DNA from: an uncultured Chthonomonas sp.
GTDB taxonomy: Bacteria > Armatimonadota > Chthonomonadetes > Chthonomonadales > CAJBBX01
Direction: 5' to 3'
Assembly: GCA_903951425.1 (NCBI GenBank)
Contig: CAJBBX010000039.1
Span: 1 to 50,477, forward strand
Length of the DNA: 50,477 nt
The notes beneath the pieces were generated by a model. That model was given only the letters and a program-made list of their open reading frames with translations. It made no database searches and was not told the origin of the DNA. Shown here piece by piece: positions 18,958 to 49,019 of the stretch (position 1 is its first letter; every line of letters begins with the position of its first letter). The position numbers and the translations under genes are program-made.

Positions 18958-19006
18958 CGCGCACCTCCTCCGCCTGCCGGCAACTATGGCGCCGGACCGG
19001 CCTGCG

Positions 19007-21025
19007 CTACGGGACCACATTGAACTGGCTATTCACGGCAACCGGCCTGTACCACGCATCGCCGGCGAACTCGCAGGTGGCGGTATGGGCGCCGGCAGGC
19101 TCACTGGCGGGGATGGCCCAGGTCACGGATGCCCACCCGTCAGATGCCACGACCGCCGTGCCCACGTCAGACCCATCGACCTTGAACGCGACGGCCTTGC
19201 CCGGCTGCGTCTTGTAGTCCGGCAGGCTGCGCACATAGGCCTTCAGCATGTGGCCTGTGCCGGCCTTCCCCGTTCGAATGTAGGGCCATATGTACAGATC
19301 GCCCTGAGTCACGGTGAGGGTTCCCGTGCCGGACGATGGCTTGTAGCCGGCCGTACCGTCGAACTGCCCCGTGATGGACCGCGGGCCCGCGCCGGAACCT
19401 TCCGGGACGGTGTACCCGAACTGGACGTAGCCCGCTGCGTTGGTGGACAGCCTGCCTATGCTGGTGCCGTCCACGCGTACATTCACGCTTAGATTTGCCA
19501 CGGACTCATTGGTCAGCAGGAACAGATAGACCTTGAGCACGGTGTAGCCCTTCACCTTGGCTGTACGGTCCACGACGTACACCTTTGTGGCGGCGACCTG
19601 CGCCGTGAGTGTTGCTGATCCGCCGGCCGGGCTGTAGGCGGCGTCCCCGGAGAATGACACCGCGATCGCCCGGGTCGCGGCGCCCGCAGTGATCGCATAA
19701 CCGCACGCTGCCATGCCGCTGCTGTTGGTCTGGCCGCTGCCTACCAAGACCCCATCGATGCGGAACTCCAGCGGCCTGCCCGCGACCCAGGCGTCGTCCG
19801 GTAGACGGCTCAGGTACCCCTTCAGTTCAACGCCCTGCGTCACGATGCCGCTTCGATCCGGGACATAGACCGCCGTGGCGGAGCGCGGAAGCCAGGCGAA
19901 GCTGGACAGGCCCCCTGCGGCGATTCCCGTTACGCCGGTGATCCCGATGACGTGCACGGGCAACGACTGTGTAGTATGCGTGTCGTCGCCGAGTTCGCCG
20001 TCGGCGTTGCGGCCCCAGGCACGGACGATGCCATCCGAACACAAGGCAACCGAGTGCTCATACCCTGCGGCGATGGCAGCCACACCCTCCAGGTTCAGTA
20101 CCTTGGCGGGCGGGGCCCCGCTGACCCCAGTGGTGCCGGCCGTCCCGCGACCCAGCTGGCCCATAGCATTGCGGCCCCACGCCCAGGCCGTGCCGTCTTC
20201 TGCCAGTGCCAGGCTGTGCGCGGCGCCACAGGCAATCGCCGTCACAGGCGGCAAACCGGGCAATGCAGCCGGCTGGTACCCGGCGCCTGTGGCGGTGAAG
20301 CCGCACTGACCATCGGAGTTGGCGCCCCACGACCATACCGTTCCGTCGGACCGCAACGCAAGGCTGTGCCACCACCCGCCGGCGACCTGGACGATGCCAT
20401 CGAGGTAGGCCACGTGGACCGGCCTAAGGCGGGCAACGGAGGTGTCGTCGCCGAGTTGGCGGCTGGAGTTATCACCCCACGCCAGCACCAGACCGTCCGA
20501 ACGCACGGCCAGGCTGTGTTTCCATCCAGCGGCCACGGCCGTGATGCCGTCAAGGTCCCACACGCAGATAGGTACTGGTCGGTCCAGAGTCGTACCGTCG
20601 CCAAGCTGGCCGTACTGGTTGCTGCCCCAGGCCCAGACAGTGCCGTCGCTCTTGAGTGCCAAGCTATGGAATCGGCCGCACGCGATCGCCGCAACGTCCA
20701 CAAGGCCCGACACCTGCACCGGCGTGGTCCGGGTGATTACCGTTCCGTCGCCGACCTGACCATACTGGTTGCCGCCCCAGGCCCAGACGGTGCCGTCGGC
20801 AGCTAGCGCCAGCGCGTGAAGGTCGCCGCTGGTCACTGCCGTGATGTTGGCGAGGCCGACAACAGCCACCGGTGTGGATTTTGACTCGGTGGTGCCGTCC
20901 CCCAGATGCCCGTTGTTGTAACCCCAAGCACCAACCGAATCCCCGGCCAAGGCCCGCGAGCCCGCATTGATGCCGCCGAGAACCAGGCTCGCGATGGCAC
21001 AAGACATCCAAAGCCGATTTCGCAC
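19007..21025 (-). CDS. RCC1-repeat beta-propeller with three Ig-like domains (copy 2)
   Basis: A 672-residue paralogue of copy 1 with the same order: signal peptide (MSCAIASLVLGGINAGSRAL), seven RCC1 repeats and three Ig-like domains ending FNVVP. The start is GTG 21025, with AGGAGG seven bases before it. The repeats are more diverged than in copy 1. Blade 5 reads DGQCGFTATG where others have GQLGDGTT, and blade 6 carries a few extra residues (GRGTAGTTGVSGAPPA). Ig landmarks are VYVPDRSGIVTQGVELKGYL, KVYVVDRTAKVKGYTVLKVY and WPYIRTGKAGTGHMLKAYV. It lies 48 bases downstream of copy 3 on the same strand. Confidence 0.93.
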   Translation of the reverse strand: MRNRLWMSCAIASLVLGGINAGSRALAGDSVGAWGYNNGHLGDGTTESKSTPVAVVGLANITAVTSGDLHALALAADGTVWAWGGNQYGQVGDGTVITRTTPVQVSGLVDVAAIACGRFHSLALKSDGTVWAWGSNQYGQLGDGTTLDRPVPICVWDLDGITAVAAGWKHSLAVRSDGLVLAWGDNSSRQLGDDTSVARLRPVHVAYLDGIVQVAGGWWHSLALRSDGTVWSWGANSDGQCGFTATGAGYQPAALPGLPPVTAIACGAAHSLALAEDGTAWAWGRNAMGQLGRGTAGTTGVSGAPPAKVLNLEGVAAIAAGYEHSVALCSDGIVRAWGRNADGELGDDTHTTQSLPVHVIGITGVTGIAAGGLSSFAWLPRSATAVYVPDRSGIVTQGVELKGYLSRLPDDAWVAGRPLEFRIDGVLVGSGQTNSSGMAACGYAITAGAATRAIAVSFSGDAAYSPAGGSATLTAQVAATKVYVVDRTAKVKGYTVLKVYLFLLTNESVANLSVNVRVDGTSIGRLSTNAAGYVQFGYTVPEGSGAGPRSITGQFDGTAGYKPSSGTGTLTVTQGDLYIWPYIRTGKAGTGHMLKAYVRSLPDYKTQPGKAVAFKVDGSDVGTAVVASDGWASVTWAIPASEPAGAHTATCEFAGDAWYRPVAVNSQFNVVP

Positions 21026-21073
21026 CTCTACGCCTCCTATCACCGCAACGCTGTAGGCGCCTTGGCCACAGCG

Positions 21074-23092
21074 CTACGGCACCACATTGAACGCCGTGCT
21101 CACAGATGCGGCTTGGTACCATGAATCTCCTGCAAATGCTGCGTTGGCCGCGTGCGCGCCGGCTGTCTCATCGGCCGGGATGCTCCACGCCAGGGTGGCC
21201 CAGCCGTCGGACCAGACCGTCGTCGCGCCGATCACCGATCCGTCGACCTTGAACGTGATCTCCTTACCGGGTTGGATCACATAATCCGGTAGGCTGCGCA
21301 CGTAGGCCTTCAGTGCGTGGCTGGTACCCACCTTGCCTGTTCGGACGTAGGGCCAGATGTAGAGATCGCCGTGGGTGACCGTCAGGGCTCCCGTGTTGGC
21401 CGACGCCAGGTAGCCCGCATCGCCGGCGAACTCTCCCCGAATGACGCGCGCGCCGGCTCCGGCGCCTTCCGGGACCGTGTAGCCGACCTGCACGCAGCCG
21501 GATGTGTTGGTGTTTCCTGAGACGAGGACGGCGCCGTCCAGCTTCAGCGTCATCGGCTTGCCGGTCAGGACTGAGTTGCCGGCCGTGAACAGATAGGCCT
21601 TCAACACGGTGTAGGCCTTGACCTTTGCAGAGCGGTCGACCACGTAGACCTTGGTCGCCACGGTCTCTGCCGTGAGGGTGGCGGTGACGGGCTGCGCGGC
21701 CGCGTAGCCGGAGTCGCCCTCGAACTCCACCTTGATGGTCCGGGCGCTCGGGCCGGGATCGATGACCCAGTTCAGCGCCGCCATGCCGCCGCCGTCCGTG
21801 AGGGCGTCACCCAGCCAGACGCCATTGACTGAGAACCTCAGCGCTCGTCCCCCAAGCCATGCGAGATCCGGTAGGCGCCGCAGGTAACCCTTCAGCGCCA
21901 CGCCGGCGCCGATGACGCCGGCGCGGTTCGGCGCGTAGAGCGAGGTGCCGGGCCGGGTGTAGGTGATGCCGAAAGCGCAGGAGTAACCCTTGCCCAGCCG
22001 GGTCAGGCCGTCCAAGCTGGGAGTTCTACCGGGTGTCAGGCGCCCTATGTTCGTACCGTCGCCGAGCTGCCCATACGTGCTGTCGCCCCAACCCCAAGCT
22101 GTACCGTCCAATCCTATGGCCAGGCATGACACCCAAGGCATGGTGAACTGGCCAAGACCCGCCACACCCGACACCAGAACCGGCGAGTTGCGCTGCACTT
22201 GCGTGCCGTCACCAAGCTCGCCGAATCCGTTGTCGCCCCAGGTCCAGACCGACCCATCCGCACGGATGGCTCCGCTGTAGACGCAGCCGGCAGCGATGCT
22301 CCTCGCGTCCGAGATGCCCAGTACCTGCACGGGGGCGAGGCGCGTCGTGGTGGTCCCGTCGCCGAGTGTGCCATAGGCGTTGTATCCCCACGACCAGACT
22401 GTGCCGTCCAGCTTCAGCGCCATGCTGCTCAGCTCGTGACATGCGACGGCAACCACGCCTCGCAGGCCGGGAACCTCCTGCGGGCGTCGGGGATCGCCAT
22501 ACTCCGTTCCGAGGCCCAACTGGCCGTAGTAGTTCCAGCCCCACACCCAGACGGATCCGTCGGCCCGCCGGGCCATGGTGTGCCATATGCCTGCGGAAAT
22601 GGCTGTCACCCCGCCGTCAAGGAGCGCTCGGACCGGCACGGCGCTGGTGTCTGTGGTGCCATCTCCGATCTCACCATAGATGTTGGCGCCCCAGCACCAG
22701 ACCGTGCCGTCCGCCCTCAGCGCGACCGAATGGAAGCCGTAGCAGGCAACTGCAACTACATTCGACAGCCCGACAACCTGGACGGGGCTAAGGCGGTTAG
22801 TCCGCGTTCCATCGCCAAGCTGACCGTACCGATTCTCACCCCAAGCCCAGACCGTCCCATCGGACCGCAGCGCCACGCTGTGATAGTAGCCTCCAGCGGC
22901 TTCGATGACGTCCGTGAGTCCGGCGACCTGCACCGGCGACCACCGATCTGTCATGGTTCCGTCGCCGAGCTGCCCGGCGTTGTTGTAACCCCACGCCAGA
23001 AGTGTACTGTCTGCCCGGGCACCCGTCGCACCCGTCGCCAAAGCAAGTGCCGCGACCACAAGGACGTGCGCCACCCAGCCTCTGTTTGTCAC
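21074..23092 (-). CDS. RCC1-repeat beta-propeller with three Ig-like domains (copy 3)
   Basis: A 672-residue member of the tandem family. GTG 23092 is taken as the start because GGAGG lies five bases upstream and the protein then begins with a signal peptide (WVAHVLVVAALALATGATGA). Seven RCC1 repeats follow (first STLLAWGYNNAGQLGDGT), with a weaker sixth blade end where the usual HSLA motif is WVSCLA. Three Ig-like domains then run to FNVVP. Landmarks are LYAPNRAGVIGAGVALKGYL, VYVVDRSAKVKAYTVLKAYL and WPYVRTGKVGTSHALKAYV. Its last Ig region shares a highly similar DNA tract with copy 1. The deleted copy lies 47 bases upstream on the same strand. Confidence 0.93.
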   Translation of the reverse strand: MTNRGWVAHVLVVAALALATGATGARADSTLLAWGYNNAGQLGDGTMTDRWSPVQVAGLTDVIEAAGGYYHSVALRSDGTVWAWGENRYGQLGDGTRTNRLSPVQVVGLSNVVAVACYGFHSVALRADGTVWCWGANIYGEIGDGTTDTSAVPVRALLDGGVTAISAGIWHTMARRADGSVWVWGWNYYGQLGLGTEYGDPRRPQEVPGLRGVVAVACHELSSMALKLDGTVWSWGYNAYGTLGDGTTTTRLAPVQVLGISDARSIAAGCVYSGAIRADGSVWTWGDNGFGELGDGTQVQRNSPVLVSGVAGLGQFTMPWVSCLAIGLDGTAWGWGDSTYGQLGDGTNIGRLTPGRTPSLDGLTRLGKGYSCAFGITYTRPGTSLYAPNRAGVIGAGVALKGYLRRLPDLAWLGGRALRFSVNGVWLGDALTDGGGMAALNWVIDPGPSARTIKVEFEGDSGYAAAQPVTATLTAETVATKVYVVDRSAKVKAYTVLKAYLFTAGNSVLTGKPMTLKLDGAVLVSGNTNTSGCVQVGYTVPEGAGAGARVIRGEFAGDAGYLASANTGALTVTHGDLYIWPYVRTGKVGTSHALKAYVRSLPDYVIQPGKEITFKVDGSVIGATTVWSDGWATLAWSIPADETAGAHAANAAFAGDSWYQAASVSTAFNVVP

Positions 23093-23139
23093 TGCTGCCT
23101 CCCTCGGCACGCGCCCTGGCGCGTGCCGCGAACGCAATG

Positions 23140-23457
23140 CTACGGAACCACGTTGAACGCCGCGTTGACTAGTACAGGCTCGTGCCAAACATCGCCCGCG
23201 AACGCTGCGGTGGCCATGTGCGCGCCGGATGGCTCGTCGGTCGGGACATCCCACGTTAGCCCGGCCCAGCCGTTCGCGCCGCTCAGGTTGGGCGCTCGAT
23301 GCGGCACGAGCCGTTGCGTCGTGGTACCGTCGCCGAGCCGCCCGGAGTCGTTGAGGCCCCACGCCCAGACCGCGCCATCGGCGCATGTCGGTGCGTGCGC
23401 CGAAGCCAGCAGAGCCACCGCCGCTGCCGCCACCACCGTCGACTTGCGGAACGCCAT
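23140..23457 (-). CDS. Internally deleted RCC1/Ig family member
   Basis: A 105-residue frame that keeps only the two ends of the family. Residues 1-27 are a signal peptide (STVVAAAAVALLASAHAP). They are followed by the start of one RCC1 repeat (DGAVWAWGLNDSGRLGDGTT). The sequence then passes directly to the last ~45 residues of the third Ig-like domain (GWAGLTWDVPTDEPSGAHMA ... FNVVP). About 560 residues found in the full-length copies are missing, yet the frame is kept. ATG 23457 has GAGGAGG six bases upstream. It may be a deletion relic still being translated, or a small secreted product. It is the first gene of the minus-strand array, so the array's promoter should lie just upstream. Confidence 0.82.
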   Translation of the reverse strand: MAFRKSTVVAAAAVALLASAHAPTCADGAVWAWGLNDSGRLGDGTTTQRLVPHRAPNLSGANGWAGLTWDVPTDEPSGAHMATAAFAGDVWHEPVLVNAAFNVVP

Positions 23458-36451: not shown

Positions 36452-39109
36452 ATGAACACTCGCATCCTTGCGGCGTTTGCCGCCTGCCCGATCTGCCTGC
36501 CGGCACTGGCCCAGCAGGCGGTGGCGCCCTCGCCGGCCGCCATTCGCACCTACCCGATCCACGCCGACGGCGGGCTGGTCTACACCCCGCTTTCTGACGA
36601 GGCGGCCAGGACCGGGCGACTCACCCGCTACGACCGTGCGCCCCGACGCACGGTGAGCGTGAAGCTGGGCGGATGCACGCTCACGGCCTCCGTGCCTGCC
36701 GCGGCCCGGGCGTATGACGTGGTGCCTATCCCATACACGCTGAGCTGGCAGGGCGCGCCCGCCTTCCCGCTGGCCGCCGAGGCCGTGGCCTTCGAGGATG
36801 AGGGCCGCCGCAAGGGGCGCGACCTCTTCGACCTCGCCCTGCCGGGTCGGCTGGACCTGAAGGTTGAGTACCTGGGTTCGATCACCGCCCATATGAAGCC
36901 CGGCGGCCGCCACAACCTGAAGCCGGACAGCAGCGACAAGCCTGCCGTCTACCCGCCCTTCACGCGCAACCCCATGGTCCGCTCCGGCGTGGTCGAGGCG
37001 GGCGATATCCTCTGGTTCCGCTTCCGGGTGACGAACACCGGCGACACCATCCTCGATCCCGAGGGCTTCGGCGGCTGGGGCCTCTACCCGGAGTTGCAGC
37101 GCCGCAAGGGCGACAAGTACGAGGTCTACAGCCACCACTACAACCTCTACATCCGCGACAAGCAGGCCCTCTACCCCGGCGAGACGCGCGACTTCTGGGT
37201 GGACTTCACGTCGGACCGCAGCACGGACTCCTACCGGATCGAGCCCGGCGAGTACCGCATCGACTTCCGCTCCTACTTCCGCTTCTACCGCGACTGGAAC
37301 GACTGGGTGAACAACTGGGAAGGCGCCTGGATGACCATCGCCCAGATGCCCGTGACCCTGGCCGACAAGCCGCGCCAGGCGCCGGTGGAGCCGCTGAAGG
37401 TGACGATGACCGACGCCGCCGTGCCGGACAAGCTGACCCGCTATATCCACACCTTCCAGGAGTTCATGACCGCCTTCGACGCCTGGCAGAAGCCGCCCGC
37501 AGCTGGGGCGAGCTCGGTCCGCGGCACGCTCTACCTCCAGGTCGCGCCATGGACCCGCCACGTGGTGCTGAAGCTCGTGGCAGCCGGGCCCGTGCGCTGC
37601 AAGACACTGGCCGTGCCGATCCGCCTGGAGGGCGGCCTTCCTGCGCTCAAGCCCAACCTCAACGCCGCCAACTGCATGGTGCAGGATGGCCGCCGCGTGC
37701 CGGTGGTCTACTCGCAACTGATGTCCGACATGCGCGCCAACATCCAGACGAGCCCCACGCCGGAGACGCAGATCATCGCCGACATCCGGCGCATGAAGGA
37801 GTGCGGCATCAACGTCTGCGCCACGACGGCCATGCCCTGGCTCTACGCCGACGCCGCCACCCCGCGCGAGAACCACCCCGGCGATGCCATGAAGTACTCG
37901 CTGGATGTGGCCCGGCGCGAAGGGATGAAGCTGGAGGCCTGGGGCAGCTATCCCTACGACCGCAGCACCGTGGCCGACATCTACAACTGGGTCACGGGCT
38001 CGTCGTTGCAGATGAACACCTACATGACGAACGGCTACCCCGCCGTCAGCCATGCCGAACCGGCCATCGCGCGGGCCAACGCGGCCATCTGGCTCTACCA
38101 GTTCCGGCGGTGGGGCGACGGCTACGCCCAGTTCGAGAACGGAGCCATACCATTCGGCACCGAGGACACGCGGGGCTGGATGCGGCAAGACGTGCACATC
38201 CGCTTCCCGGTCGGCGACCTGACCAAGGGCGCCTTCCGCGCGTGGCTACGCGAGCGGTTCGTGACCGTGGAGCGCATGAACGCCGCCTGGGGCTCGCGCT
38301 TCGAGAGCTTCGACAGCGTGGACCCCGAGGCCGGCGCCGCCGTGAACATGTTCGGCCACCGCTTCGAGTACCTGAACGCGGCCAACCTGTTCCACGACTG
38401 GAGCCCGGCCATGGCCGACTACGACGCGTACCGGACCTGGATGCGCTGCAAGAACTACGCCGAATCGCGGGAGATCATCCGCCGTGAGGTCCCGCAGGCA
38501 GCCATGTTCCTCCGCACCGAGGGCGCCAACGCCATCGTGGAGGGGCTGAGCCCCGCCGATCCCAACCCGCACTTCCGCCATGCCTACTACAGCCAGCGGC
38601 GCGTGGGCGCCGAGGCGGAGATGATCCGCAAGTCCGGCGCCTTTGCCTACCACTCCGACTACACGACACTCCCCTACACGCCAAGCGAACTGCGCAAGCT
38701 CACCGGCATGGGAGTGAAACAGGGCATCGTGCCTGCCTGGCTCCCGCAGTTCGACAACATGCGGGACATCGCCGTCAACGGGAAGTACGGCACTGACTAC
38801 ACGGTGAACTTCAACACGGACCGCCCCGTGAAGGGCGCCATGATGCACGTGCTCACGGCAGTCTATCCCTGGTTCCAGGCTGTCTCCGAGGCGGGCGGCA
38901 TCCCGGGCATCCTCTGGGACGACCTCCAGTGCGACGGTTTCGCAACGGAGACCCAGCAACGCGAGTTGCTTCTCTACAAGCAGGCCATGGCCCGCTACCT
39001 GGCCACCCCGGCAGGCCGCAAGGCGGCGACCAAGGGTGTCCAGAAGCCCGACAGATCATGGCTGAAGAAGGTGACGCCCAGGCGGTGCTACGTGCTGCCC
39101 AAAGGCTGA
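36452..39109 (+). CDS. Secreted GH42-like TIM-barrel protein
   Basis: An 885-residue protein with a signal peptide (residues 1-20, ending CLPALAQQ). The first ~430 residues are beta-rich, with DILWFRFRVTNTGDTILDP, YHTL-type strands and a repeated FRSYFRFYRDWNDW segment. The C-terminal half is a TIM-barrel-like region with strong likeness to family 42 beta-galactosidases around FRAWLRERFVTVERMNAAWG, followed by SRFESFDSVDP, and LWDDLQCDGFATETQQ near the end. Catalytic Glu residues are not assigned with certainty; the ENGAIPFGTED segment near residue 560 is one candidate. The ribosome site is weak. Glycoside hydrolysis is the likely role (inference). Confidence 0.75.
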   Translation: MNTRILAAFAACPICLPALAQQAVAPSPAAIRTYPIHADGGLVYTPLSDEAARTGRLTRYDRAPRRTVSVKLGGCTLTASVPAAARAYDVVPIPYTLSWQGAPAFPLAAEAVAFEDEGRRKGRDLFDLALPGRLDLKVEYLGSITAHMKPGGRHNLKPDSSDKPAVYPPFTRNPMVRSGVVEAGDILWFRFRVTNTGDTILDPEGFGGWGLYPELQRRKGDKYEVYSHHYNLYIRDKQALYPGETRDFWVDFTSDRSTDSYRIEPGEYRIDFRSYFRFYRDWNDWVNNWEGAWMTIAQMPVTLADKPRQAPVEPLKVTMTDAAVPDKLTRYIHTFQEFMTAFDAWQKPPAAGASSVRGTLYLQVAPWTRHVVLKLVAAGPVRCKTLAVPIRLEGGLPALKPNLNAANCMVQDGRRVPVVYSQLMSDMRANIQTSPTPETQIIADIRRMKECGINVCATTAMPWLYADAATPRENHPGDAMKYSLDVARREGMKLEAWGSYPYDRSTVADIYNWVTGSSLQMNTYMTNGYPAVSHAEPAIARANAAIWLYQFRRWGDGYAQFENGAIPFGTEDTRGWMRQDVHIRFPVGDLTKGAFRAWLRERFVTVERMNAAWGSRFESFDSVDPEAGAAVNMFGHRFEYLNAANLFHDWSPAMADYDAYRTWMRCKNYAESREIIRREVPQAAMFLRTEGANAIVEGLSPADPNPHFRHAYYSQRRVGAEAEMIRKSGAFAYHSDYTTLPYTPSELRKLTGMGVKQGIVPAWLPQFDNMRDIAVNGKYGTDYTVNFNTDRPVKGAMMHVLTAVYPWFQAVSEAGGIPGILWDDLQCDGFATETQQRELLLYKQAMARYLATPAGRKAATKGVQKPDRSWLKKVTPRRCYVLPKG

Positions 39110-39126
39110 GTGGAGGGCGGAAGCCG

Positions 39127-39404
39127 ATGGGCGAGGCGATGGCCTACCTGCATGTGCATGCCGTCTGGGCGACCAAGCAGCGGCAGCCTCTCCTGACCGG
39201 CGAGGTAGGAACGATCGTCTACGCCTGTGTCCGTGAGAAGTGCCGGCAGATGGGCTGTACGGTGATCGCCATGGGCGGCGTCGAGGACCACGTCCATCTG
39301 CTTGCTCGCATACCAAGCACACTCCCGGCAGCCGAACTGGTTCGAGGCGCCAAGGGCGCCTCATCGCGTGCGGTGACCCATGGTCGACTCGCGGCGGTTC
39401 GCCT
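39127..39404 (+). pseudogene. Truncated IS200/RAYT-type Y1 transposase
   Basis: About 87 residues of a Y1-transposase (HUH single-strand transposase) frame remain: AYLHVHAVWATKQRQPLLTG, then MGGVEDHVHLLARIPSTLPA and GAKGASSRAV. The HUH metal-binding motif is present as HVHLL. The C-terminal helix that carries the catalytic tyrosine (Y-x-x-x-Q) is missing: the reading frame runs into the REP-like hairpin at 39406 and stops at 39513. The likeness to REP-associated tyrosine transposases is reinforced by the adjacent palindrome. It is probably inactive. It lies between two convergent genes. Confidence 0.82.
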
Positions 39405-39405
39405 A

Positions 39406-39456
39406 TGGTCTCGGTGCGACGGCCCGCCTCGCGGCGGGCCGTCACTCGACCGACGG
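39406..39456 (+). repeat. REP-like palindromic element, copy A
   Basis: A 51-base element with a perfect 11-base stem (39418-39428 with 39433-39443) and a four-base TCGC loop. It is followed by the conserved tail ACTCGACCGACGG. A second copy in inverted orientation is at 48743-48793, and 46 of 51 positions match. It directly follows the truncated Y1 transposase. Confidence 0.85.
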
Positions 39457-39502
39457 GGTCGGGCCTGGGGCGACGTTCTAGCCGCGACCCGCCGGCGCCG
39501 CC

Positions 39503-42238
39503 CTATCTCGTGATCGCGATCCTCGATATCTGGATCTTCACCTCCGGCTTGTTGCAGGCGTCGATGCGCAGGCTTGTGATGACGCCGCGCCAGCGCTGGT
39601 TCTTGCCTACGGGCAGGGCGTAGGTGTGCCACTGGCCGTCTACCTTCGACGGCGCACGGACGCTGGCCTCTTCGCTGGTGCCCGCCGAGCGGGTGCTCCA
39701 GAAGACCTGAAGAGTGTCGTCGGACTGGGCGCCGGCTTTGCCCGTGAGCTTCATGCGGATGGTCACCGACCGTCGCGTGGTGGCTCGCACCTGCACCGGC
39801 GGGCCGAAGAAAGCCGGGTCGCGGCCGGTCGAGCGGACCGTCAGTGCGCCGTCGGTCAGTTCGGCCTTCGTGATGTCCATGCCGCTCTCCCAGCCGCCGA
39901 TGTCCTTGGAGAGGTCCCACACGCCGCCCGTTCCAGCCAGCACGTCGACCTCGGGGGTCACGGCGCCAACGTCGGCCGGGGTCAGGTCGGTGTGCTTCTC
40001 GGGCGCCTCGGTGAAGACGCGGCGGATGGCGTCCAGGTAGCCGAAGCCGAACTCCTGCTGCGGCTCGACGTAGGAGCCCTCGCCAAGCTCGTTCCAAGCT
40101 TCGATCAGGGTCACGGGAAGCGCCTTCTTCGGGTTGGCCTCGATGAATGCCTTGGCATCGCGCAGGTGCCGCTCGAAGTTGGCGGGGTTGCGGCCGTAGC
40201 GCACCAGGGCCGCGTCGCCGTGCCACGGTCGCGAGTCCCAGCCGCCGGAGACGGGCGTCATGATGGGGATGCTGCACTGCGAGACGGCCACGTCCCACTG
40301 CTTGCGGTAGGGCTCCAGCAGATCGTCGAAGGAGGCCCACTTCTCCGAGCCGCGCAGGCCAAGGCCCGGCCAGTTGTACGCGGTGATGGCGTCGTAGCCC
40401 TCCTCTTCGGCCACCTTCGCCTCGCCGGGGCTGCCGCCGACGCAGGCGATCATGTAGAGGCCCTTGAGGCCGGCGGCCACGCACATGCGGCGCATTTCCG
40501 TGAAGGCGCGCTTCACTTCGGGGCTGCCCATATCGGCGCGGAAGCGGTGCGGGGTGAAGATGATCATCACCGGCTTGCCGTCGATGGTGTAGTGCTCGGG
40601 CCGCTTGAAGTAGTTGTCGATCCAGTAGCGCGTCACCTTCTGCATGTCGGCGTAGGACGAGGTGCCCTCGGCGTTGTGGTTCGCCCAGAGCAGGCAGAAC
40701 TTGATCTGCTTACCGTACTTCGACTTGAAGAGGCCGTCGTGCAGACCGTGCTCCAATGAACGGGAGCCCTGGCTCCAATACCAGTCATAGGCGAAGAAGG
40801 TCACGCCGTGCTCCACGGCCCACTTCACCTGCCAGTCGGCCACCGAGGGGTCCCCCTCGCGGTACCAGCCCAGGACGGGACGCCGCTCGGGGAAGCGCAT
40901 GATGGGCGCCCACTGCCCGGCCGATCGCCAGCCGGGGAAGTAGTAGATGCCCACGTCGATTTGCTTCGGACGGACAGGCGTCGGCGCGGGCATGACGCCG
41001 GTGCGCGCAACGACCGGAGCCGCTGTGACCTGCACCTGCGTGGTCGTGCTGACGGCCGGCGCTCCCGGCCCGCCCACGGTGAGGCCCACGCGATAGGAGC
41101 CCGGCCTCGGGAATCGGAGGCTCCAGCGCCAGGTGGCATCCTCGTCGAAGCCGATGGCCTGCTTCGGAGCGGCCGCCGTCCGCGAGGCTGAAACGCCTGC
41201 CGGCAGTGTGAGTCGTGCGCTGACACCCTTCGCCTCGGCGCCGCCGGCGTTGCCCACCCGGGCGGTCAGCGGCACGTCGCGCCCGCTACGCGGAAGGGCC
41301 TGCTCGGCGCCGAACCATGCGATGCGGAGGTCGGCCGCACCGGCAGGGAGGGCCGCCGGGGCAATCGAGTGGACCGTCACCGCGTCGCCGACCACCGTGC
41401 CGGGGCGCACTCCGAGGCCGACGATACGTCCCGCCCAGCCTGGCTGCGACATAACATCGACGTTGTAGACGTGGGGCTTGCCGTCGGGCGTCAGCTTTAC
41501 GGAGACCTCGCGGAGGCCGTTCACCTTGTCCGACGCATAGACGAGCGCCGCCCGTGAGGTCTTGCTGGACGTCAGGCGGAGGCAGACGTATGGCAGCGTC
41601 TCAGAGTCGGCGGGCGTGATGGGCGCCAGCGCGAAGGCCTCGGGCTCAGCCACCCGTAGCGTCGCGCCGCTCCGTCCGGCCTCGGCATCCACACCCTGCC
41701 GCAGCGTCCAGGCGGCGCCGGAACCGACGGCCGGTCCGGCGGACGCGCCCATGGGCAGTTGGACGATGCGCACGGCGCCCATCTCGAACCGGGTGGCGTC
41801 GTAAGGGTCCAGCCGCATTTGGATGATCTGCCCCTCGGCCTGCCAGAAGGGGTAGACACGGTAGGTGCGCCACTTGCCGTCGCCGACGACGCCTAGCGAA
41901 CTCGACTTCTCGCCGGAGAAGCCGCCGTAGGCGCCCTCCTTGGTGCCGGACCAGAAGATTTGCATCAGACCGTCGCGGTCGGCCTTCATCGGTATCTCGA
42001 TCACCTGCCACGCGTTGGCCTTGATCTGGAAGGCAGGCCTGTAGATGAGAATCGGATCGCCGCCTACGGTGCGGAAGCGGGCCCGGTCCCCGGCGGCCTC
42101 CAGGTCGGCCATGTCCTGGTTCACGGTCCACTGCGCAGCCGCGCGGCTGACGTCCAGTTCGACCAGTGTGGCGGGCCCGGGTGGCTGCGCCTGCAGCCCG
42201 GCGGCGAGCCAGACGAGTGCGGCGGCGAATGCGAGCAT
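39503..42238 (-). CDS. Secreted GH99-like-domain protein flanked by beta-sandwich modules
   Basis: A 911-residue protein with a signal peptide (LAFAAALVWLAAGLQAQPPG). Residues ~25-160 are an accessory beta-sandwich (VGDGKWRTYRVYPFWQ, MRLDPYDATRFEMG). A second beta region contains Ig-like strands to ~415. Residues ~423-745 are a GH99/WbsX-like TIM-barrel domain: DVGIYYFPGWRSAGQWAPIM, GWYREGDPSVADWQVKWAVE, FFAYDWYWSQGS, EAWNELGEGSYVEP. Residues ~763-911 are another accessory module (KVDGQWHTYALPVG, ITSLRIDACNKPEV). Known GH99 enzymes act on alpha-mannosides, but the GH99-like group is broader. ATG 42238 has AGAGGGA upstream; the in-frame ATG at 42277 has none. It is divergent from the next enzyme gene. 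Confidence 0.85.
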   Translation of the reverse strand: MLAFAAALVWLAAGLQAQPPGPATLVELDVSRAAAQWTVNQDMADLEAAGDRARFRTVGGDPILIYRPAFQIKANAWQVIEIPMKADRDGLMQIFWSGTKEGAYGGFSGEKSSSLGVVGDGKWRTYRVYPFWQAEGQIIQMRLDPYDATRFEMGAVRIVQLPMGASAGPAVGSGAAWTLRQGVDAEAGRSGATLRVAEPEAFALAPITPADSETLPYVCLRLTSSKTSRAALVYASDKVNGLREVSVKLTPDGKPHVYNVDVMSQPGWAGRIVGLGVRPGTVVGDAVTVHSIAPAALPAGAADLRIAWFGAEQALPRSGRDVPLTARVGNAGGAEAKGVSARLTLPAGVSASRTAAAPKQAIGFDEDATWRWSLRFPRPGSYRVGLTVGGPGAPAVSTTTQVQVTAAPVVARTGVMPAPTPVRPKQIDVGIYYFPGWRSAGQWAPIMRFPERRPVLGWYREGDPSVADWQVKWAVEHGVTFFAYDWYWSQGSRSLEHGLHDGLFKSKYGKQIKFCLLWANHNAEGTSSYADMQKVTRYWIDNYFKRPEHYTIDGKPVMIIFTPHRFRADMGSPEVKRAFTEMRRMCVAAGLKGLYMIACVGGSPGEAKVAEEEGYDAITAYNWPGLGLRGSEKWASFDDLLEPYRKQWDVAVSQCSIPIMTPVSGGWDSRPWHGDAALVRYGRNPANFERHLRDAKAFIEANPKKALPVTLIEAWNELGEGSYVEPQQEFGFGYLDAIRRVFTEAPEKHTDLTPADVGAVTPEVDVLAGTGGVWDLSKDIGGWESGMDITKAELTDGALTVRSTGRDPAFFGPPVQVRATTRRSVTIRMKLTGKAGAQSDDTLQVFWSTRSAGTSEEASVRAPSKVDGQWHTYALPVGKNQRWRGVITSLRIDACNKPEVKIQISRIAITR

Positions 42239-42362
42239 GGTGGTTCCCTCTTGCGGTGGCGATTCGTGCGGTATCACGTTACCCCGAGACGCGAGACATG
42301 AGGGCGCAGGCGGTGGGGTAGCCTATTGGGACTGACGCGGTCTGGGGATCGGCACGGCTCGC

Positions 42363-42414
42363 CCTCCTGCAGGAGGCGCTTGGACCATCTCACGCACGTG
42401 CGCTTCTGCGCACG
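42363..42414. promoter_or_regulatory. Two palindromes in the divergent promoter region
   Basis: CCTCCTGCAGGAGG at 42363-42376 is a perfect 14-base palindrome. CGTGCGC and GCGCACG at 42397-42403 and 42408-42414 form a 7-base stem with a TTCT loop. Both lie in the 210-base gap between divergent secreted-enzyme genes and are candidate operators. No clear -35/-10 pair is visible. Confidence 0.4.
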
Positions 42415-42448
42415 GCCGGCGGCGGTGGCTGCCCGGAGGCTAGAGACA

Positions 42449-45400
42449 ATGGCAAGGTGGTGGCCGGCTCCGCTCCTGGCGGCGCTTGGAGTTGCGGCGC
42501 TGGGCGATGTTCGTATCGCCAATCCTGGCTTTGAGCAGGACGGCGCCGCCATTCAGGGCGTCGGCTACCTCGGCCAGGGCAACAGCCTCGCGGGATGGCG
42601 CGCCAGCTTTGCCATGGGTGTGGGGCGCAACGCGGCTTCGTCAGCCTTCTTTGACAACGGCCTGCTGCCCGAGGGTCGTTGCGTGGCGGTGCTTCAGAAC
42701 CCGAACTGGATCGAGCAGGTCGCCCCCGGAGCCGAGGCCGGTCGCGTCTACCGCCTTTCGGTCCGCGCCAACGGCCGCGCCGCCGACGGGGCGAAGCGGG
42801 CAGCGTTGCGCGTTGAGGTCAACGGCACAGCCCTGATCAACGAAGCAGCCGTGGCTCCTGTGGGCGCCGGGAAGCCGTACCACACTTACGCCGCCTGGTT
42901 CCGCGCCGGTTCGGGTTCGCTGCACCTGCGCTTGAGCCAGACCTCCGCGGAGGAGGGCGTCTCCGTTCTCGTCGACGATGTTCGCATCGAGGCCGCTCCT
43001 GCGGGCGAACCGCCGCCGGCCGTCGTCGATGTGAACCCGGCGTTGGTTGTTTCCGAGCCCGTGATCCGCCCCGATTCCGACCTGACCGATGTGCAATGGA
43101 TCTGGACCAGCGAGGTACGCACAGCACAGGACAACGCGCCGGTCTGCGTCCGTTACTTCCGGAGGTCGTTCACGGTACCCGCGGGCGCTCGAGTGCGTCG
43201 CGCCACCCTGACCTTCACCTCTGATAACACCGCGCAGGCCTTCGTCAACGGCGCCCGGTGTGCCTGGAACGACGACCACAGCCGCCTCTTTCGAGCCGAC
43301 GTAACGCACCTGATCCGGGCCGGAGCCAACGCGCTGGCCTTCCGCGTGGCCAATCTGGGCGACAAGCCCAATCCCGCCGGCCTCGTGGCTGTCCTGCAAG
43401 TGGAGACGGTCGCCGGGCGTCCGCTCCGCATCGCCACCGGCGCCGACTGGCTCTGCTCGGACACCGCCCCCTCCCACTGGGCGTCTGCCAGCTTCCGTGC
43501 GGCGGGCTGGCGTCGCGCCACGCCCCTCGGCGAGTTCGGGGGCGCGCCCTGGGGATGGGTGGGCCCGCCGTCGCCGCGCGTGCCGCGTGCTTTCCCCGAC
43601 TTCATCGTCCCCGGCCACGAGCGTGAGATGGGCCTTTTGCGGCGCCTCTTCGCGCTCCATCTACCCGGCGCGCGGCCCGTCTCGACGCTCTGGGACATCT
43701 GGCTCCCCATGTCGTCGCTATGGGCGGCGGCGGAGGCCGACCTGAGCCGGCCCCGCTCACCGGAGCAGTGGAGCCGCGCCCTTGAGAACGGTCGCCGTAT
43801 CTCCGCGGAGGGCTACGTCTCCACGCACCAGCACCGCGGGTACGGCCACAGTGAGGGCTGGCCCATTCCGCTCTATATGCAGACCGGCGGCTTGGGCTTC
43901 CACTTCTCGACAGCGGGCGATGTCTTCGCCACCTGGGTTCCCCTAAAGGCCAGGCCCGAGGATTGGCAGACGGAGGGCCTCCGCCGCGGCGCCCTGGAGC
44001 CTGACCGAGGATGGCATCTCGCGCTGGATGCCGGCCTCGGCAGTGTGACCTCCCCCGCATTCGATATCCCCATGGCCGCGGCGCCCATGGCCCGCCTGGA
44101 GTGGGCGCCGGGACGCGTTCGATCGGGCACGGTCCAGTGGACCACCGCCGACCGGCCCGAGTTCGACGAGGCCCGGAGCATGGCCTTCGAGGCCCCGGTT
44201 GAGGCGCCCGGCATGGGCTACACCAACGTGCTGCTCTACCGCTGCCCGGCATGGAGCGACGAGGGCCGGATGACGCGCCTTCGGGTCACCCTCAAGGGCG
44301 AACCCGACGACCAAATCGTGCTCAAGGAGCTCATTACGCCGGCCGACACACGCCACAACGTGAACAACCCGGCCTACCTCATCGGCTGCGCGGACTACGT
44401 GGAGTGGACCGGCGACGCCGCATTCGTCAAGCGTAACATCGAACGGATGCGCCTCGCCATGCGGTTCGCCATCTCGGAGTTCCGCCTTCGCGAGAGCCGT
44501 TGCGTCGATATGTCCTGGTATGGCCACGATGGCCGAGGAGGCTTCACGCGGGATGCTTCGGGCAAGAAGCTCCCGCGCTACGCGGGCGGCGTGGGATGCA
44601 ACTACTGGGACCTGCTCCCCTCCGGCGGGAAGGATACGCTGGCCACCGTCTACTGCCACGAGGCCCTGCGCCGCATGGCCGGCCTGGAGCGAGCCGTAGC
44701 CGCGCACCCGGAGTGGGCGGTGTCCGCGGCCGGTGCGCTGGACCCGGCCGACCTCGAAGCCCTTGCCGCGGCCATGAAGGCCGAGATGAACGCCTCGCTC
44801 TGGAACGCCGAGACGGGCCGCTTCCCGGCATCAGTGGACTGCAACGGCGTGTTCCACGACTTCGGATACACCTACGTCAACTGCGAGGCGGTGGCCTACG
44901 GCGTGGCCTCGCCGCAGCGTGCCCGGTCGATCTACGAGTGGCTCGACGGCAAGCGCACGGTGCCGGGCGACACATCGCAAGGGGCCGATATCTACCATTG
45001 GCGCTTCGGGCCGAGGGCCAGCACCCGGCGCAATCTGGACTGGTACAGCGGCATGTGGGACCCCGAGAACGTGCCCTTCGGCGACCAGGTGCAGGACGGC
45101 GGCAGCGTGTTGGGCTTCTCCTACCACGACCTGCTGGCTCGCCTGAAAACGCTGGGACCGGACAACGCCTGGCGCCGCCTCCAGCAGCTGCTCGCCTGGT
45201 TCGCCGACGTGCAGGCTGAGGGCGGCTACCGGGCCTACTACGGCAAGGGCGGCCGGGGCACGATGCAGGGCGGAGGACCTCCCGGCGGCCTCGGAATGGA
45301 TAACGAGTTCTTTGAGAGCGTCCTCGTGCCGCAGATCATGCTCTACGGCTTCATGGGCGCCCGTCCGAGCCTCGCCGGGCTCGCGCTGAACCCAACGCTG

Positions 45401-45622
45401 CCCGCCTCGTGGCCATATCTGACCATCACGCGGGTCCGGTGCCACGGCGTGACGCTGAGCCTCCACGCCACACGGACGCGGATACGGGTGACAGCGCTCG
45501 GCGGCAAGGGAGCTGCGGCGCTCCGAGTCGTTGCCGGGTCAAGCGCATGGCGTGTAGTGGGTCCGCGCAACTCCGTGCAGCGTCCGGGTGACGTGGTGGA
45601 GTTCGTGCGCGCGGGCAAGTGA
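42449..45622 (+). CDS. Secreted six-hairpin-glycosidase-like protein with N-terminal binding domains
   Basis: A 1057-residue exported protein; ATG 42449 follows GGAGG by nine bases. A signal region (WWPAPLLAALGVAALG) is followed by a CBM4/9-like jelly-roll (RIANPGFEQDG, VLVDDVRIEA, to ~190). A second beta-sandwich at ~220-370 resembles the N-terminal domains of alpha-L-rhamnosidases (DVQWIWTSEVRTAQDNAPVC, FTSDNTAQAFVNG, DVTHLIRAGANALAFRV). From ~430 on there are helix pairs typical of (alpha/alpha)6 barrels, including YLIGCADYVEWTGDAAFVKR and MDNEFFESVLVPQIMLYGFM. A C-terminal beta domain ends the chain. The overall order resembles GH78-type enzymes, but the catalytic region is diverged and no family is assigned. 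Confidence 0.75.
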   Translation: MARWWPAPLLAALGVAALGDVRIANPGFEQDGAAIQGVGYLGQGNSLAGWRASFAMGVGRNAASSAFFDNGLLPEGRCVAVLQNPNWIEQVAPGAEAGRVYRLSVRANGRAADGAKRAALRVEVNGTALINEAAVAPVGAGKPYHTYAAWFRAGSGSLHLRLSQTSAEEGVSVLVDDVRIEAAPAGEPPPAVVDVNPALVVSEPVIRPDSDLTDVQWIWTSEVRTAQDNAPVCVRYFRRSFTVPAGARVRRATLTFTSDNTAQAFVNGARCAWNDDHSRLFRADVTHLIRAGANALAFRVANLGDKPNPAGLVAVLQVETVAGRPLRIATGADWLCSDTAPSHWASASFRAAGWRRATPLGEFGGAPWGWVGPPSPRVPRAFPDFIVPGHEREMGLLRRLFALHLPGARPVSTLWDIWLPMSSLWAAAEADLSRPRSPEQWSRALENGRRISAEGYVSTHQHRGYGHSEGWPIPLYMQTGGLGFHFSTAGDVFATWVPLKARPEDWQTEGLRRGALEPDRGWHLALDAGLGSVTSPAFDIPMAAAPMARLEWAPGRVRSGTVQWTTADRPEFDEARSMAFEAPVEAPGMGYTNVLLYRCPAWSDEGRMTRLRVTLKGEPDDQIVLKELITPADTRHNVNNPAYLIGCADYVEWTGDAAFVKRNIERMRLAMRFAISEFRLRESRCVDMSWYGHDGRGGFTRDASGKKLPRYAGGVGCNYWDLLPSGGKDTLATVYCHEALRRMAGLERAVAAHPEWAVSAAGALDPADLEALAAAMKAEMNASLWNAETGRFPASVDCNGVFHDFGYTYVNCEAVAYGVASPQRARSIYEWLDGKRTVPGDTSQGADIYHWRFGPRASTRRNLDWYSGMWDPENVPFGDQVQDGGSVLGFSYHDLLARLKTLGPDNAWRRLQQLLAWFADVQAEGGYRAYYGKGGRGTMQGGGPPGGLGMDNEFFESVLVPQIMLYGFMGARPSLAGLALNPTLPASWPYLTITRVRCHGVTLSLHATRTRIRVTALGGKGAAALRVVAGSSAWRVVGPRNSVQRPGDVVEFVRAGK

Positions 45623-46071
45623 AGGGTGCCGGCTCGAGGCCCTCTGGACCGGCGAAATGAGGGAGGGTGGATAGACCGCCCTCCTGCCGATGGAAGTCCG
45701 GAGCGGCCAAAGCGGTTCGCTCACGTGAGAGAGAGAGTACATGGAGAGCCGGTGCGGTCCCCGGTTGGTGAGCCCCGACACCGCAGCGTCGCCATCCCAG
45801 ATAGTCGGCACACCAGGCCTCAGCGGGCGGAAGCTCGCCGGGCCGGGACCGTGCACTCCACTCCGGTATAGAGCTGTTACTCGAAGTGCCGCACGATTTG
45901 CGCCGCCCGTGGGTCCGCGATCTTGCCTGCGATGCTGTTGGGCTCACGATGTCTCACCAGCCGATGCCGTTTCGATACGAGAGGTCCAGAGGGTACTGAT
46001 GCAGGGGATGATCTGTCTGTCGTGGCGCGCCGGCGACGCGCGTCCTGCGGTTGGTTACGTTCAACAGGCAA
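45623..46071. other. 449-base gap without a supported gene; one strong hairpin
   Basis: No reading frame here has a credible start, composition or family likeness. At 45661-45685, GGGAGGGTGG pairs with CCGCCCTCCT (10 pairs as RNA, counting two G-U) around an ATAGA loop, 38 bases after the stop of the preceding gene. It may end or stabilise that transcript, though no T-run follows. A purine-rich run (GTGAGAGAGAGAGTAC, 45725-45740) and a second short stem near 45747-45766 follow, so a structured RNA is possible but unproven. Confidence 0.45.
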
Positions 46072-47100
46072 ATGGCGCCGTCCGTGGCTAGCCCGCGTGC
46101 CGGCAAGCGTCGCGCGGGCTGCGGTACGCGCGCTTTGGGGTGGCTCGCCTCCATCTACTCGGTTGCCCTGGTGGCGCTGGGCATCCTCGGCATGGGCGTC
46201 GCGGAGCAGTGGTGGCTGGGCACGCTGGCGGCCTACCTGCCGCAGTGGCCTTTCGCGGCGTGCGGACTGGCGTTGGCGGCGCTCTGTGCGTTGCTGCGGA
46301 CCTGGCGGCCGTCGGTGGCTGTAGCCTTGAGCTCTGCTATCTTCTACGCTGTCTGCTGCGGCTTCGCGGTGGGTTCTCCGCAGCCCTCCGAACCCGGCGC
46401 GTTACGGGTGCTGACCTACAACATCCACGGCGGCCGAGGAGGCCTTGACGCGCTGGCGGAAACGATCCTCCGAGAGCGCCCGCACATCGCCTGCCTTCAG
46501 GAGGCCGACTGGCCCGATAGGGTGAGGGGTTTCCCCCAGGAGATGGCGGGTCGCCTGAAGGGCTACCGGTGCTTCAGTTCCCGGGGGCTCATGGTCGCGT
46601 CTCGCATACCCATGCTCAGCAGCCGCACCGTCCTGCTCTCCAAGCAGTCGGAGTTCCGACCAGCGCTCGTCGTCACGGCCAAGCTGGCAGACGCAGAGGT
46701 TACTGTCATCTGTGTCCACTTCGCGAACGGCCGCGCCAACCAGACGCTGTTCAAGCACACGAACGGCCTGGAGGAGTACTTCGACGCGGCGGCCGATATC
46801 CGTGAGGCCCAGGCTGTCAGTATCACCAATCTGGTGGGGAAGATCGACGGGCCGCTGGTGGTCTGCGGCGACTTCAACACGCCGCCGAGGGGTCAGGTCT
46901 ACGAGCAGATTGCCGCGGCCCTGACCGACAGCTACCGCGAGTCGGCTCTGGGCTTGGGTTGTACCTACCCGAGCAACCTGCCCATGCTGCGCATCGACTA
47001 CATCTGGCACAACCGCCACGCCGAGGCGCTGCAGGCGCGGGTTATCAACACGCGGGCGTCCGACCACCGGCCCGTCGTCGCGGAGATCGCCCTGGACTGA
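46072..47100 (+). CDS. Membrane-anchored endonuclease/exonuclease/phosphatase-family protein
   Basis: A 342-residue protein. Three hydrophobic helices lie in residues ~22-105 (ASIYSVALVALGILGMGV, FAACGLALAALCALLR, SAIFYAVCCGFAVG). They precede an EEP-fold catalytic domain: LRVLTYNIHGGRGG with the metal/active Asn, CLQEADW with the catalytic Glu, VVCGDFNTPPRG with Asp-Asn, LRIDYIWHN and ASDHRPVVAEI with the final Asp-His. The full catalytic set is present. The topology places the catalytic domain after the helices, probably extracytoplasmic. Family members cleave phosphodiesters in nucleic acids or lipids; the substrate here is unknown. The start is uncertain: ATG 46072 has a weak ribosome site and TTG 46051 is the alternative. 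Confidence 0.88.
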   Translation: MAPSVASPRAGKRRAGCGTRALGWLASIYSVALVALGILGMGVAEQWWLGTLAAYLPQWPFAACGLALAALCALLRTWRPSVAVALSSAIFYAVCCGFAVGSPQPSEPGALRVLTYNIHGGRGGLDALAETILRERPHIACLQEADWPDRVRGFPQEMAGRLKGYRCFSSRGLMVASRIPMLSSRTVLLSKQSEFRPALVVTAKLADAEVTVICVHFANGRANQTLFKHTNGLEEYFDAAADIREAQAVSITNLVGKIDGPLVVCGDFNTPPRGQVYEQIAAALTDSYRESALGLGCTYPSNLPMLRIDYIWHNRHAEALQARVINTRASDHRPVVAEIALD

Positions 47101-47185
47101 GCCCCTGCCGGAGGCGCCCGTGGGGTAGTCTGAGACCGGCGGCAGGCCCCCGTGTGCCGCCGAACCCGACCGAGGAGAGACCGCC

Positions 47186-48697
47186 ATGCCCCAGACCGAG
47201 AGGCGCCCGAACCGTGCCGAGAAGCCGGAGAAGGAGGTCCCCGCGCCGCCCAAACCGGTGAGCCCATTCGACAAGGCGCCCGTCGTCAGCCGCAGCACGG
47301 TGACCGTGGGCGGCAAGCAGGTCCGCTACGCCGTGCATACGGGCATCATGCCCATGCGCGACGACCAGGGCGAGGATGAGGCGGGCATCTTCTACATGGC
47401 CTACATCCGCGAGGACGCAGCCAAGGGCGCCGACCGGCCCCTCATGTTCTCCTTCAACGGCGGCCCCGGCTCGGCCTCGCTCTGGCTCCACCTGGGCGCC
47501 CTGGGTCCCCGCCGCGTCGAGACGCTGGAGGACAGCCTGCCGCCGCCGCCCTACAAGGTGATCGACAACGAGTACACCTGGCTCGACGATACCGACCTGG
47601 TCTTCATCGATCCCGTGGGCACCGGCTTCAGCAAGCCGAAGACGGCCGAGGTCGGCAAGAAGCACTGGGGCTTGGAGGGCGATGTACGCTCCATCGGGGA
47701 GTTCATCCGGCTGTTTCTGACGCGGTTCCAGCGCTGGTCGTCGCCCCTCTTCATCGTCGGTGAGAGCTACGGCACCACCCGCGCGGCCGGGCTGGCGGGG
47801 CACCTCATCGACCGGGGCATCGCGCTTAACGGCATCGTCCTGGTCTCCTCCATCCTGAACTTCCAGACCGCCCGCTTCTGTCGGGGCAACGACCTGCCAC
47901 ACGTCCTCTTCCTGCCCACCTACACCGCAACCGCCTGGTACCACGGCAAGCTGGCCCCCGAGCTTCAGGCCGACCTCAAGGCCACGCTGGCCGAGGCCGA
48001 GGCCTTCGCCGCCGGGCCCTACAGCGAGGCGCTTGCCAGGGGAGACCGGCTCACCGCCGACGAGCGCGCCGAAATGGTGCGCCGCGTGGCCCGCTACACC
48101 GGCCTCAGCGAGGAGTACATCGACGAGACCGACCTCCGCGTGCAGATCCACCGCTTCTGCAAGGAGTTGCTCCGGCGCGAGAAGCGCTCCGTCGGCCGCC
48201 TCGACAGCCGGTTCAAGGGCATCGACGCCCTGGCCGCCACGGAGTACCCCGACCACGACCCCGCCATGACGGTCATCATGCCGCCCTACACCTCGGCCTT
48301 CAACGCCTATGTCCGCGGCGAGCTGAAGTACGAAACGGACGAGGTATACAACGTCCTCGGAAGCGGCATCAAGAGCCCGTGGGACTGGGGCTCGGCCGGC
48401 AACGGCTACCCGGACACCAGCGAGGCGCTCCGCTCGGCGTTCAGCAAGAACCCGCACATGAAGGTGTTCGTCGCCAGCGGCTACTACGATCTGGCGACCC
48501 CCTACTTCGCCACCGAGTACACCCTGAGCCACATGGGTCTCGACCCCGAGGTGCGCGGCAACATCAGCACCGGCGAGTACCGCGCGGGCCACATGATGTA
48601 CGTCCACGCCGACTCGCTGGCTGCCCTCAAGGCCGATGTGAGCCGCTTCCTGAGGAAGGCCCTCCCCTCCGCGGCAGGCGAAGCGCCGCAGGGATGA
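47186..48697 (+). CDS. Peptidase S10 (serine carboxypeptidase-like)
   Basis: A 503-residue serine carboxypeptidase-family protein. FSFNGGPGSASLWLHLGALG is the oxyanion-hole region. The nucleophile Ser is in FIVGESYGTTRAAGL (residue ~191). The catalytic Asp is in VASGYYDLATPYFATEY (~433), and the His is in EYRAGHMMYVHADS (~472). All three are in the expected order. No signal peptide is visible: the first ~40 residues are charged and proline-rich (PNRAEKPEKEVPAPPKP), so it may be cytoplasmic or exported by another route. GAGGAGAG lies just upstream of the ATG. It follows the EEP gene by 85 bases. Confidence 0.95.
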   Translation: MPQTERRPNRAEKPEKEVPAPPKPVSPFDKAPVVSRSTVTVGGKQVRYAVHTGIMPMRDDQGEDEAGIFYMAYIREDAAKGADRPLMFSFNGGPGSASLWLHLGALGPRRVETLEDSLPPPPYKVIDNEYTWLDDTDLVFIDPVGTGFSKPKTAEVGKKHWGLEGDVRSIGEFIRLFLTRFQRWSSPLFIVGESYGTTRAAGLAGHLIDRGIALNGIVLVSSILNFQTARFCRGNDLPHVLFLPTYTATAWYHGKLAPELQADLKATLAEAEAFAAGPYSEALARGDRLTADERAEMVRRVARYTGLSEEYIDETDLRVQIHRFCKELLRREKRSVGRLDSRFKGIDALAATEYPDHDPAMTVIMPPYTSAFNAYVRGELKYETDEVYNVLGSGIKSPWDWGSAGNGYPDTSEALRSAFSKNPHMKVFVASGYYDLATPYFATEYTLSHMGLDPEVRGNISTGEYRAGHMMYVHADSLAALKADVSRFLRKALPSAAGEAPQG

Positions 48698-48742
48698 GGG
48701 GGTCGGCATCGACCTAGTGACTCCCCGTCCGGCCCAGCCCAA

Positions 48743-48793
48743 CCGTCGGTCGAGTGACTGCCCGCCGCCAGGCGGGCAGTCGTATCGAGACCA
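48743..48793 (-). repeat. REP-like palindromic element, copy B (inverted)
   Basis: This is the second copy of the 51-base element at 39406-39456, in the opposite orientation. It has an 11-base stem (48756-48766 with 48771-48781) and a four-base loop. Relative to copy A one stem pair is changed on both sides (G-C to T-A), so pairing is preserved. It lies 45 bases after the S10 peptidase stop. No transposase is adjacent. Confidence 0.85.
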
Positions 48794-48830
48794 CGGTCGC
48801 ACCGCACCGATCCGCCGTTGGTGGCTGGCC

Positions 48831-48870
48831 CTCCGTGCCCGTCCGTGCCCGTCCGTGTCTGTCCGTGTTC
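48831..48870. repeat. Four-unit 10-base tandem repeat
   Basis: Four successive 10-base units share TCCGTG at the same position (CTCCGTGCCC, GTCCGTGCCC, GTCCGTGTCT, GTCCGTGTTC). They lie in a ~320-base intergenic stretch after the S10 gene that otherwise holds only the REP-like element. Confidence 0.8.
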
Positions 48871-49019
48871 CGTGTGAGCTCTACGCCACCAGGAACGCAC
48901 ACGGACATGCGCCCGCACCGGCCGTCGTACTGATGAGCTACTCCCGTACCATGTCGAACCTGCGGTTCCTTGCACACATTGCCGTGATGCCAGGGGGGGT
49001 CTTCTGCCCGGGCGAGCCG

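What the first reader, a model, noticed from the sequence alone, without database searches (positions are those of the whole stretch)
39406..48793. Two inverted REP-like hairpins with a compensatory base change
Seen: 39406-39456 (forward) and 48743-48793 (reverse) match at 46 of 51 positions. Both have an 11-base stem with a 4-base loop. One of the five differences is in the loop, two are outside the stem, and the other two form a G-C to T-A swap that keeps pairing. Inference: selection on the folded form, as expected for REP elements recognised as single-strand hairpins.
Basis: seen in the sequence. Interest (0 to 1): 0.62.

Follow-up and report, generated by a model that had tools for sequence, protein, structure and literature searches.

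The report
Scattered REP-like hairpins without a transposase
The two hairpins belong to a family of about 22 short, mostly intergenic palindromes in this bacterium whose paired bases change together; the same outer sequence frame recurs in other bacterial phyla, but no intact enzyme that could move them was found in this genome.

Summary
The family is real: about 22 copies in this 6.08 Mb genome, also in both other species of the genus, and essentially absent from the other relatives searched; 18 of 19 copies tested are intergenic. Stem covariation is well supported (three pairs with double changes; all four combinations of two swaps occur). A sister subfamily shows it in the outer helix too (GGTC/GACC to GGTT/AACC). 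The outer frame GGTCTCGATAC-G[stem]C-TACTCGACC (reverse strand: GTAG at the stem foot) recurs with unrelated stems in Actinobacteria, Chloroflexi and a distant family of the same phylum: a GTAG-type REP by anatomy. The window's family has lost one base of that tag. The transposase part is not supported: the genome's only Y1 gene is a truncated remnant beside copy A that scores as IS200, not RAYT. A closed genome with 23 frame copies and all 12 actinobacterial carriers tested have no Y1 gene. Best reading: formerly mobile, now relic REP elements of a patchy cross-phylum class whose mobilising enzyme is lost or unidentified. New variant of a known kind; moderate interest.

The parts
39406..39456 (+). 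REP-like element, copy A (arms 39418-39428 and 39433-39443, loop 39429-39432); lacks the 5' flank TGCGRCCG of other copies and has GGTGCG where the consensus has GATACG
48743..48793 (-). REP-like element, copy B (on the minus strand: arms 48781-48771 and 48766-48756); match to the family model spans 48739-48801; lies where synteny with both sister species ends
39127..39399 (+). Truncated Y1 (HUH) transposase pseudogene, PF01797 positions 4-82 of 121 at 39145-39381, DHVHLL motif kept, catalytic-tyrosine end missing; ends at copy A; IS200-like

Best explanation
Copies A and B are two of about 22 dispersed copies of a GTAG-type REP element (the 'alpha' family) in this genome. The element is a 10-11 bp hairpin inside a constant frame that also pairs (GGTC..GA ... 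TC..GACC). Shown: the frame, the multi-copy and mostly intergenic distribution, covariation in the inner and outer helices, restriction of this stem to one genus, and differences in occupancy between species. Inferred: the copies spread as folded single-stranded DNA handled by a hairpin-recognising enzyme, most likely a Y1/HUH transposase acting in trans as proposed for REPs; that enzyme is now missing from this genome, so the copies are relics under relaxed constraint. Which enzyme moved them is not shown.
For: About 22 copies scoring above 50 bits; stem 95% paired with double changes at three pairs, above shuffled and slid controls; 18 of 19 intergenic; sister subfamily beta with compensated outer helix; GTAG at the stem foot in the wider class; inverted doublets 10-50 bp apart in Actinobacteria, as in REPINs; species-specific occupancy; a decayed Y1 gene beside copy A.
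Against: No intact Y1 gene in G000. Y1 genes in sister species are not flanked by the hairpins. Carriers G126 (closed), G198, G011 and 12 Actinobacteria have no Y1 gene at all. No clean insertion boundary could be read. The GTAG tag is damaged in the window's family (GTG).
Confidence: 0.6

Rival explanations
1. The frame class is moved by an enzyme that is not a Y1 transposase and that reads the outer frame rather than the stem; this enzyme is still present but unrecognised.
For: Frame letters are constant across phyla while stems change completely; frame-rich genomes without any Y1 gene.
Against: No recurrent gene family was found next to the frame hairpins; no transposase-like gene recognised between close hairpins in G126. 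The GTAG tag points to the Y1/TnpA-REP mode.
Confidence: 0.2
2. The hairpins are host functional elements (transcription terminators, RNA stabilisers or chromosome-organising sites) spread by duplication and kept for that role.
For: Strong hairpins, nearly all intergenic; one locus keeps a copy in all three species.
Against: Copies lie between divergent as well as convergent genes; occupancy differs between sister species; no Rfam match; patchy distribution across phyla.
Confidence: 0.1
3. Copy A is the right-end hairpin of the IS200-like element whose transposase remnant adjoins it, and the family is a set of miniature derivatives of that element.
For: Copy A begins where the transposase homology ends; the remnant scores as IS200; IS200/IS605 ends carry hairpins (PMC6006769).
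Against: The Y1 gene is cut about 40 profile positions before its end; in G001 the same pseudogene stands without the hairpin, though with a larger deletion; copy A is a diverged member lacking the 5' flank of the others; no other copy adjoins a Y1 gene.
Confidence: 0.1

Closest known systems
GTAG-tagged REP super-family (Di Nocera et al. 2013, PMC3733652)
   Same: Short intergenic hairpins with GTAG at the stem foot, stems of 6-13 bp, subfamilies with compensated stem changes, inverted doublets, several families per genome.
   Different: Long constant pairing frame on both sides of the stem; in the window's family GTAG is reduced to GTG; no adjoining RAYT; Actinobacteria are not mentioned in that survey.
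REPINs and RAYTs (Nunvar 2010, PMC2817692; Bertels and Rainey 2011, PMC3116915)
   Same: Dispersed palindromes, inverted doublets in actinobacterial carriers.
   Different: RAYT genes flanked by the repeats are obligatory there; none found here. Window copies A and B are single, 9.3 kb apart, not a REPIN.
IS200/IS605 insertion sequences
   Same: The remnant beside copy A is an IS200-like Y1 transposase; such elements have hairpin ends.
   Different: The gene is a truncated pseudogene, and the other hairpin copies have no such gene.

Membership tests
REP element (repetitive extragenic palindrome) | Short imperfect palindrome in many copies | tested here: met
   About 22 alpha copies plus at least 7 beta copies in G000
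REP element (repetitive extragenic palindrome) | Extragenic location | tested here: met
   18 of 19 by a simple codon-usage gene caller
REP element (repetitive extragenic palindrome) | Compensated changes in the stem | tested here: met
GTAG-tagged REP | GTAG or GTGG at the foot of the hairpin | tested here: inconclusive
   Met in subfamily beta and in the wider class (191 of 198 matches have CTAC); in the window's alpha family one base is missing
RAYT-mobilised REP (REPtron) | Y1 (RAYT) gene in the genome flanked by the same REPs | tested here: not met
   Only a truncated IS200-like remnant in G000; sister-species Y1 genes not flanked; closed carrier G126 has none. G000 is in 188 contigs, so a gap cannot be excluded
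RAYT-mobilised REP (REPtron) | Cleavage of the folded strand by the transposase | not testable with these tools
   Needs biochemistry
REPIN | Two inverted REPs within about 100-150 bp | tested here: not met
   Copies A and B are 9.3 kb apart; alpha-beta inverted pairs occur in the genus and frame doublets in Actinobacteria
Intrinsic terminator | Hairpin followed by a T run downstream of genes | tested here: not met
   No T run follows the stems; copies also between divergent genes

The most novel reading that the evidence does not exclude
A cross-phylum class of single-strand hairpin elements, defined by an outer pairing frame (GGTY-TC-GA-TAC-G[any stem]C-TAC-TC-RACC) with a freely changing stem, is mobilised by an enzyme other than a Y1 transposase, because frame-rich carrier genomes, one of them closed, have none.
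Probability: 0.2. Interest if true: 0.72.

Novelty: new variant of a known kind. Interest (0 to 1): 0.45.

Why it matters
REPs are thought to depend on a dedicated Y1 transposase (RAYT). A REP-like class with one constant frame in at least three phyla, freely changing stems and no visible transposase asks what spreads it, and offers a natural experiment on which part of a REP hairpin is read. For the window itself it explains two odd hairpins and the transposase pseudogene beside one of them.

Tried and rejected
Recurrent gene next to frame hairpins in 137 loci: only long spurious frames and ordinary genes. Genes between close hairpins in closed genome G126: nothing transposase-like recognised by eye. 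Clean empty sites in sister species: flanks break near the elements, often at contig ends or synteny breaks, so insertion boundaries could not be read. A PF01797 match beside frame hairpins in an Anaerolineae contig (L277) is a long protein without an HUH motif seen by eye, not a RAYT candidate; the intact Y1 gene in L273 is about 1.2 kb from the hairpins. Literature by motif: no paper with TGGTCTCGATACG; the listed hits of six shorter motifs look, by title, like primers and unrelated sequences. Actinobacterial sample: of 119 genomes only the Nocardioides centre has many copies, single hits elsewhere look like chance.

Full report
Observation. The two 51-base segments are as described: 46/51 identity in inverted orientation, 11-bp stem, 4-base loop, differences at positions 9, 11, 16, 25 and 35, of which 16 and 35 are paired. 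Random sequence of the same composition gave at most 34/51. As single-stranded DNA both fold well (z -3.1 and -4.5).

The family. A genome-wide search with a 71-base consensus-like query finds about 20 full copies. A covariance model built from 19 of them gives 31 hits in the genome; about 22 of these score above 50 bits and belong to what I call the alpha family, the others are truncated or belong to a sister subfamily, beta. Eight copies lie within about 310 bp of a contig end, so the true number is probably higher. In 19 alpha copies the stem is 95% paired; three pairs show double changes (C-G/A-T in 4 copies, T-A/G-C in 3, T-A/C-G in 5), with covariation above shuffled and slid controls. 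All four combinations of the first two swaps occur (CCTG, CCGG, ACTG, ACGG), so this is not one inherited change. One pair is unpaired (C.A) in 6 copies, so the constraint is not strict. By a simple codon-usage gene caller 18 of 19 copies are intergenic, between convergent, divergent and co-directional genes.

Relatives. Among 81 genomes of the phylum the model finds the family in the genus only (G000 31 hits, G001 9, G002 18); two other genomes give one weak hit each. One locus (G000 C12:64264) carries an alpha copy with the same CCGG-type stem in all three species, so some copies are vertically inherited. At four other G000 copies the flanks are found in sister species without an intact alpha hairpin at that place; near one of them a partial, inverted alpha-like segment lies about 250 bp away. 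Subfamily beta, GGTTTCGATACG-GYCCGCGC...GCGCGGRC-CTACTCAACC, occurs in all three species and repeatedly sits within about 200 bp of an alpha copy in the opposite orientation. Between alpha and beta the outer helix has changed on both sides (GGTC/GACC to GGTT/AACC).

A wider class. The frame GGTCTCGATAC-G[stem]C-TACTCGACC occurs far outside the genus. Fifteen viral contigs carry it with unrelated stems; in 13 of them 98.6% of cells pair and covariation is far above controls. More than 120 stretches of named genomes hold it, mostly Actinobacteria (Rathayibacter, Agromyces, Nocardioides, Aeromicrobium, Agreia) and Chloroflexi (Anaerolineales), before the scan stopped at its limit. Of 198 matches 61% have a perfect stem of at least 5 bp, against 2% when the interior is shuffled. 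In the window's phylum the frame is patchy: 6 of 201 genomes, no hit of the backwards control; G126, a closed 3.29 Mb genome, has 23. Twenty-five distinct copies from G126 and its congener G198 show covarying stems. In the viral and named-genome loci the outer 4-mers are GGTC/GACC 226, GGTT/AACC 16 and mixed 4, so the outer helix covaries as well. Neighbouring hairpins are mostly inverted, many 10-50 bp apart. On the other strand the frame reads GGTCGAGTAG-stem-CGTATCGAGACC, with GTAG at the stem foot as in GTAG-tagged REPs (PMC3733652). The window's alpha family has lost one base there (GAGTG-stem).

The transposase question. ORF 38929-39513 holds a Y1 (HUH) transposase fragment, PF01797 positions 4-82 of 121, ending about 25 bp before copy A. 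It is the only such gene in the genome. NCBIfam places it with IS200 (61.3 bits, cut-off 55), not with REP-associated transposases (17.9 bits, cut-off 80). In G001 only about the first 26 codons remain at the same place, without a hairpin of this family, so the gene is an old pseudogene that predates the split of these species. [quoted passage not shown] here the C-terminal part is missing. Intact Y1 genes of G001 and G002 have none of these hairpins in the flanks held (one flank is cut by a contig end). G126, G198 and G011 have no Y1 match even at E 10, and none of 12 actinobacterial carriers has one at E 0.001. Chloroflexi carriers do have Y1 genes, but those examined are not flanked by the frame. 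The RAYT link is therefore not met wherever it could be tested, although REPtron loss after spread is documented for other bacteria (PMC3733652).

Conclusion. In anatomy and distribution it works like a REP; membership as a RAYT-mobilised REP is not shown. The more interesting point lies outside the given coordinates: a constant pairing frame with a free stem, shared patchily among phyla, without a recognisable transposase. I found no published description of this frame in the open-access papers searched, which is weak evidence of novelty, because most subscription papers are not held.

Noticed in passing
G000 C83, C139, C17, C145, C12, C86 (e.g. L009, L013, L003, L032): A third hairpin family, GTCATCCTGA-[palindrome]-GAAGGACCCCC, is interspersed with the alpha and beta hairpins and in C17, C83 and C139 follows directly on truncated alpha copies.
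   Followed up: partly
48600-48800: Synteny with both sister species ends within about 130 bp of copy B, just after the S10 peptidase gene; other alpha copies also lie at synteny breaks or contig ends.
   Followed up: partly
L130 (G001:C135, about 9020-9045): In G001 the transposase pseudogene is cut and followed by a different short palindrome, GGGGGAGCCGGGGGGCTCCCCC, where G000 has copy A.
   Followed up: no
16978-23400: Successive genes with long direct repeats (300-nt segments 72-80% alike, spaced about 2 kb) and arrays of about 150-nt units on the minus strand; related segments occur in many places of the sister genomes.
   Followed up: no
48823-48880: Short tandem-like run of (CACGGACGGG) units upstream of copy B on its strand.
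   Followed up: no
L192/G097 (Nocardioides terrae): Many copies of the frame have an interior CTCGCTGGCGCTCGC that pairs only with TC/TC mismatches, so the inner stem is not always a perfect palindrome while the frame is kept.
   Followed up: partly
L277 1465-2688 and similar loci L274, L275, L278, L289, L290: PF01797 matches in long (about 400-555 aa) Chloroflexi open frames; in L277 no HUH motif is seen by eye, perhaps a domesticated or unrelated domain.
   Followed up: no
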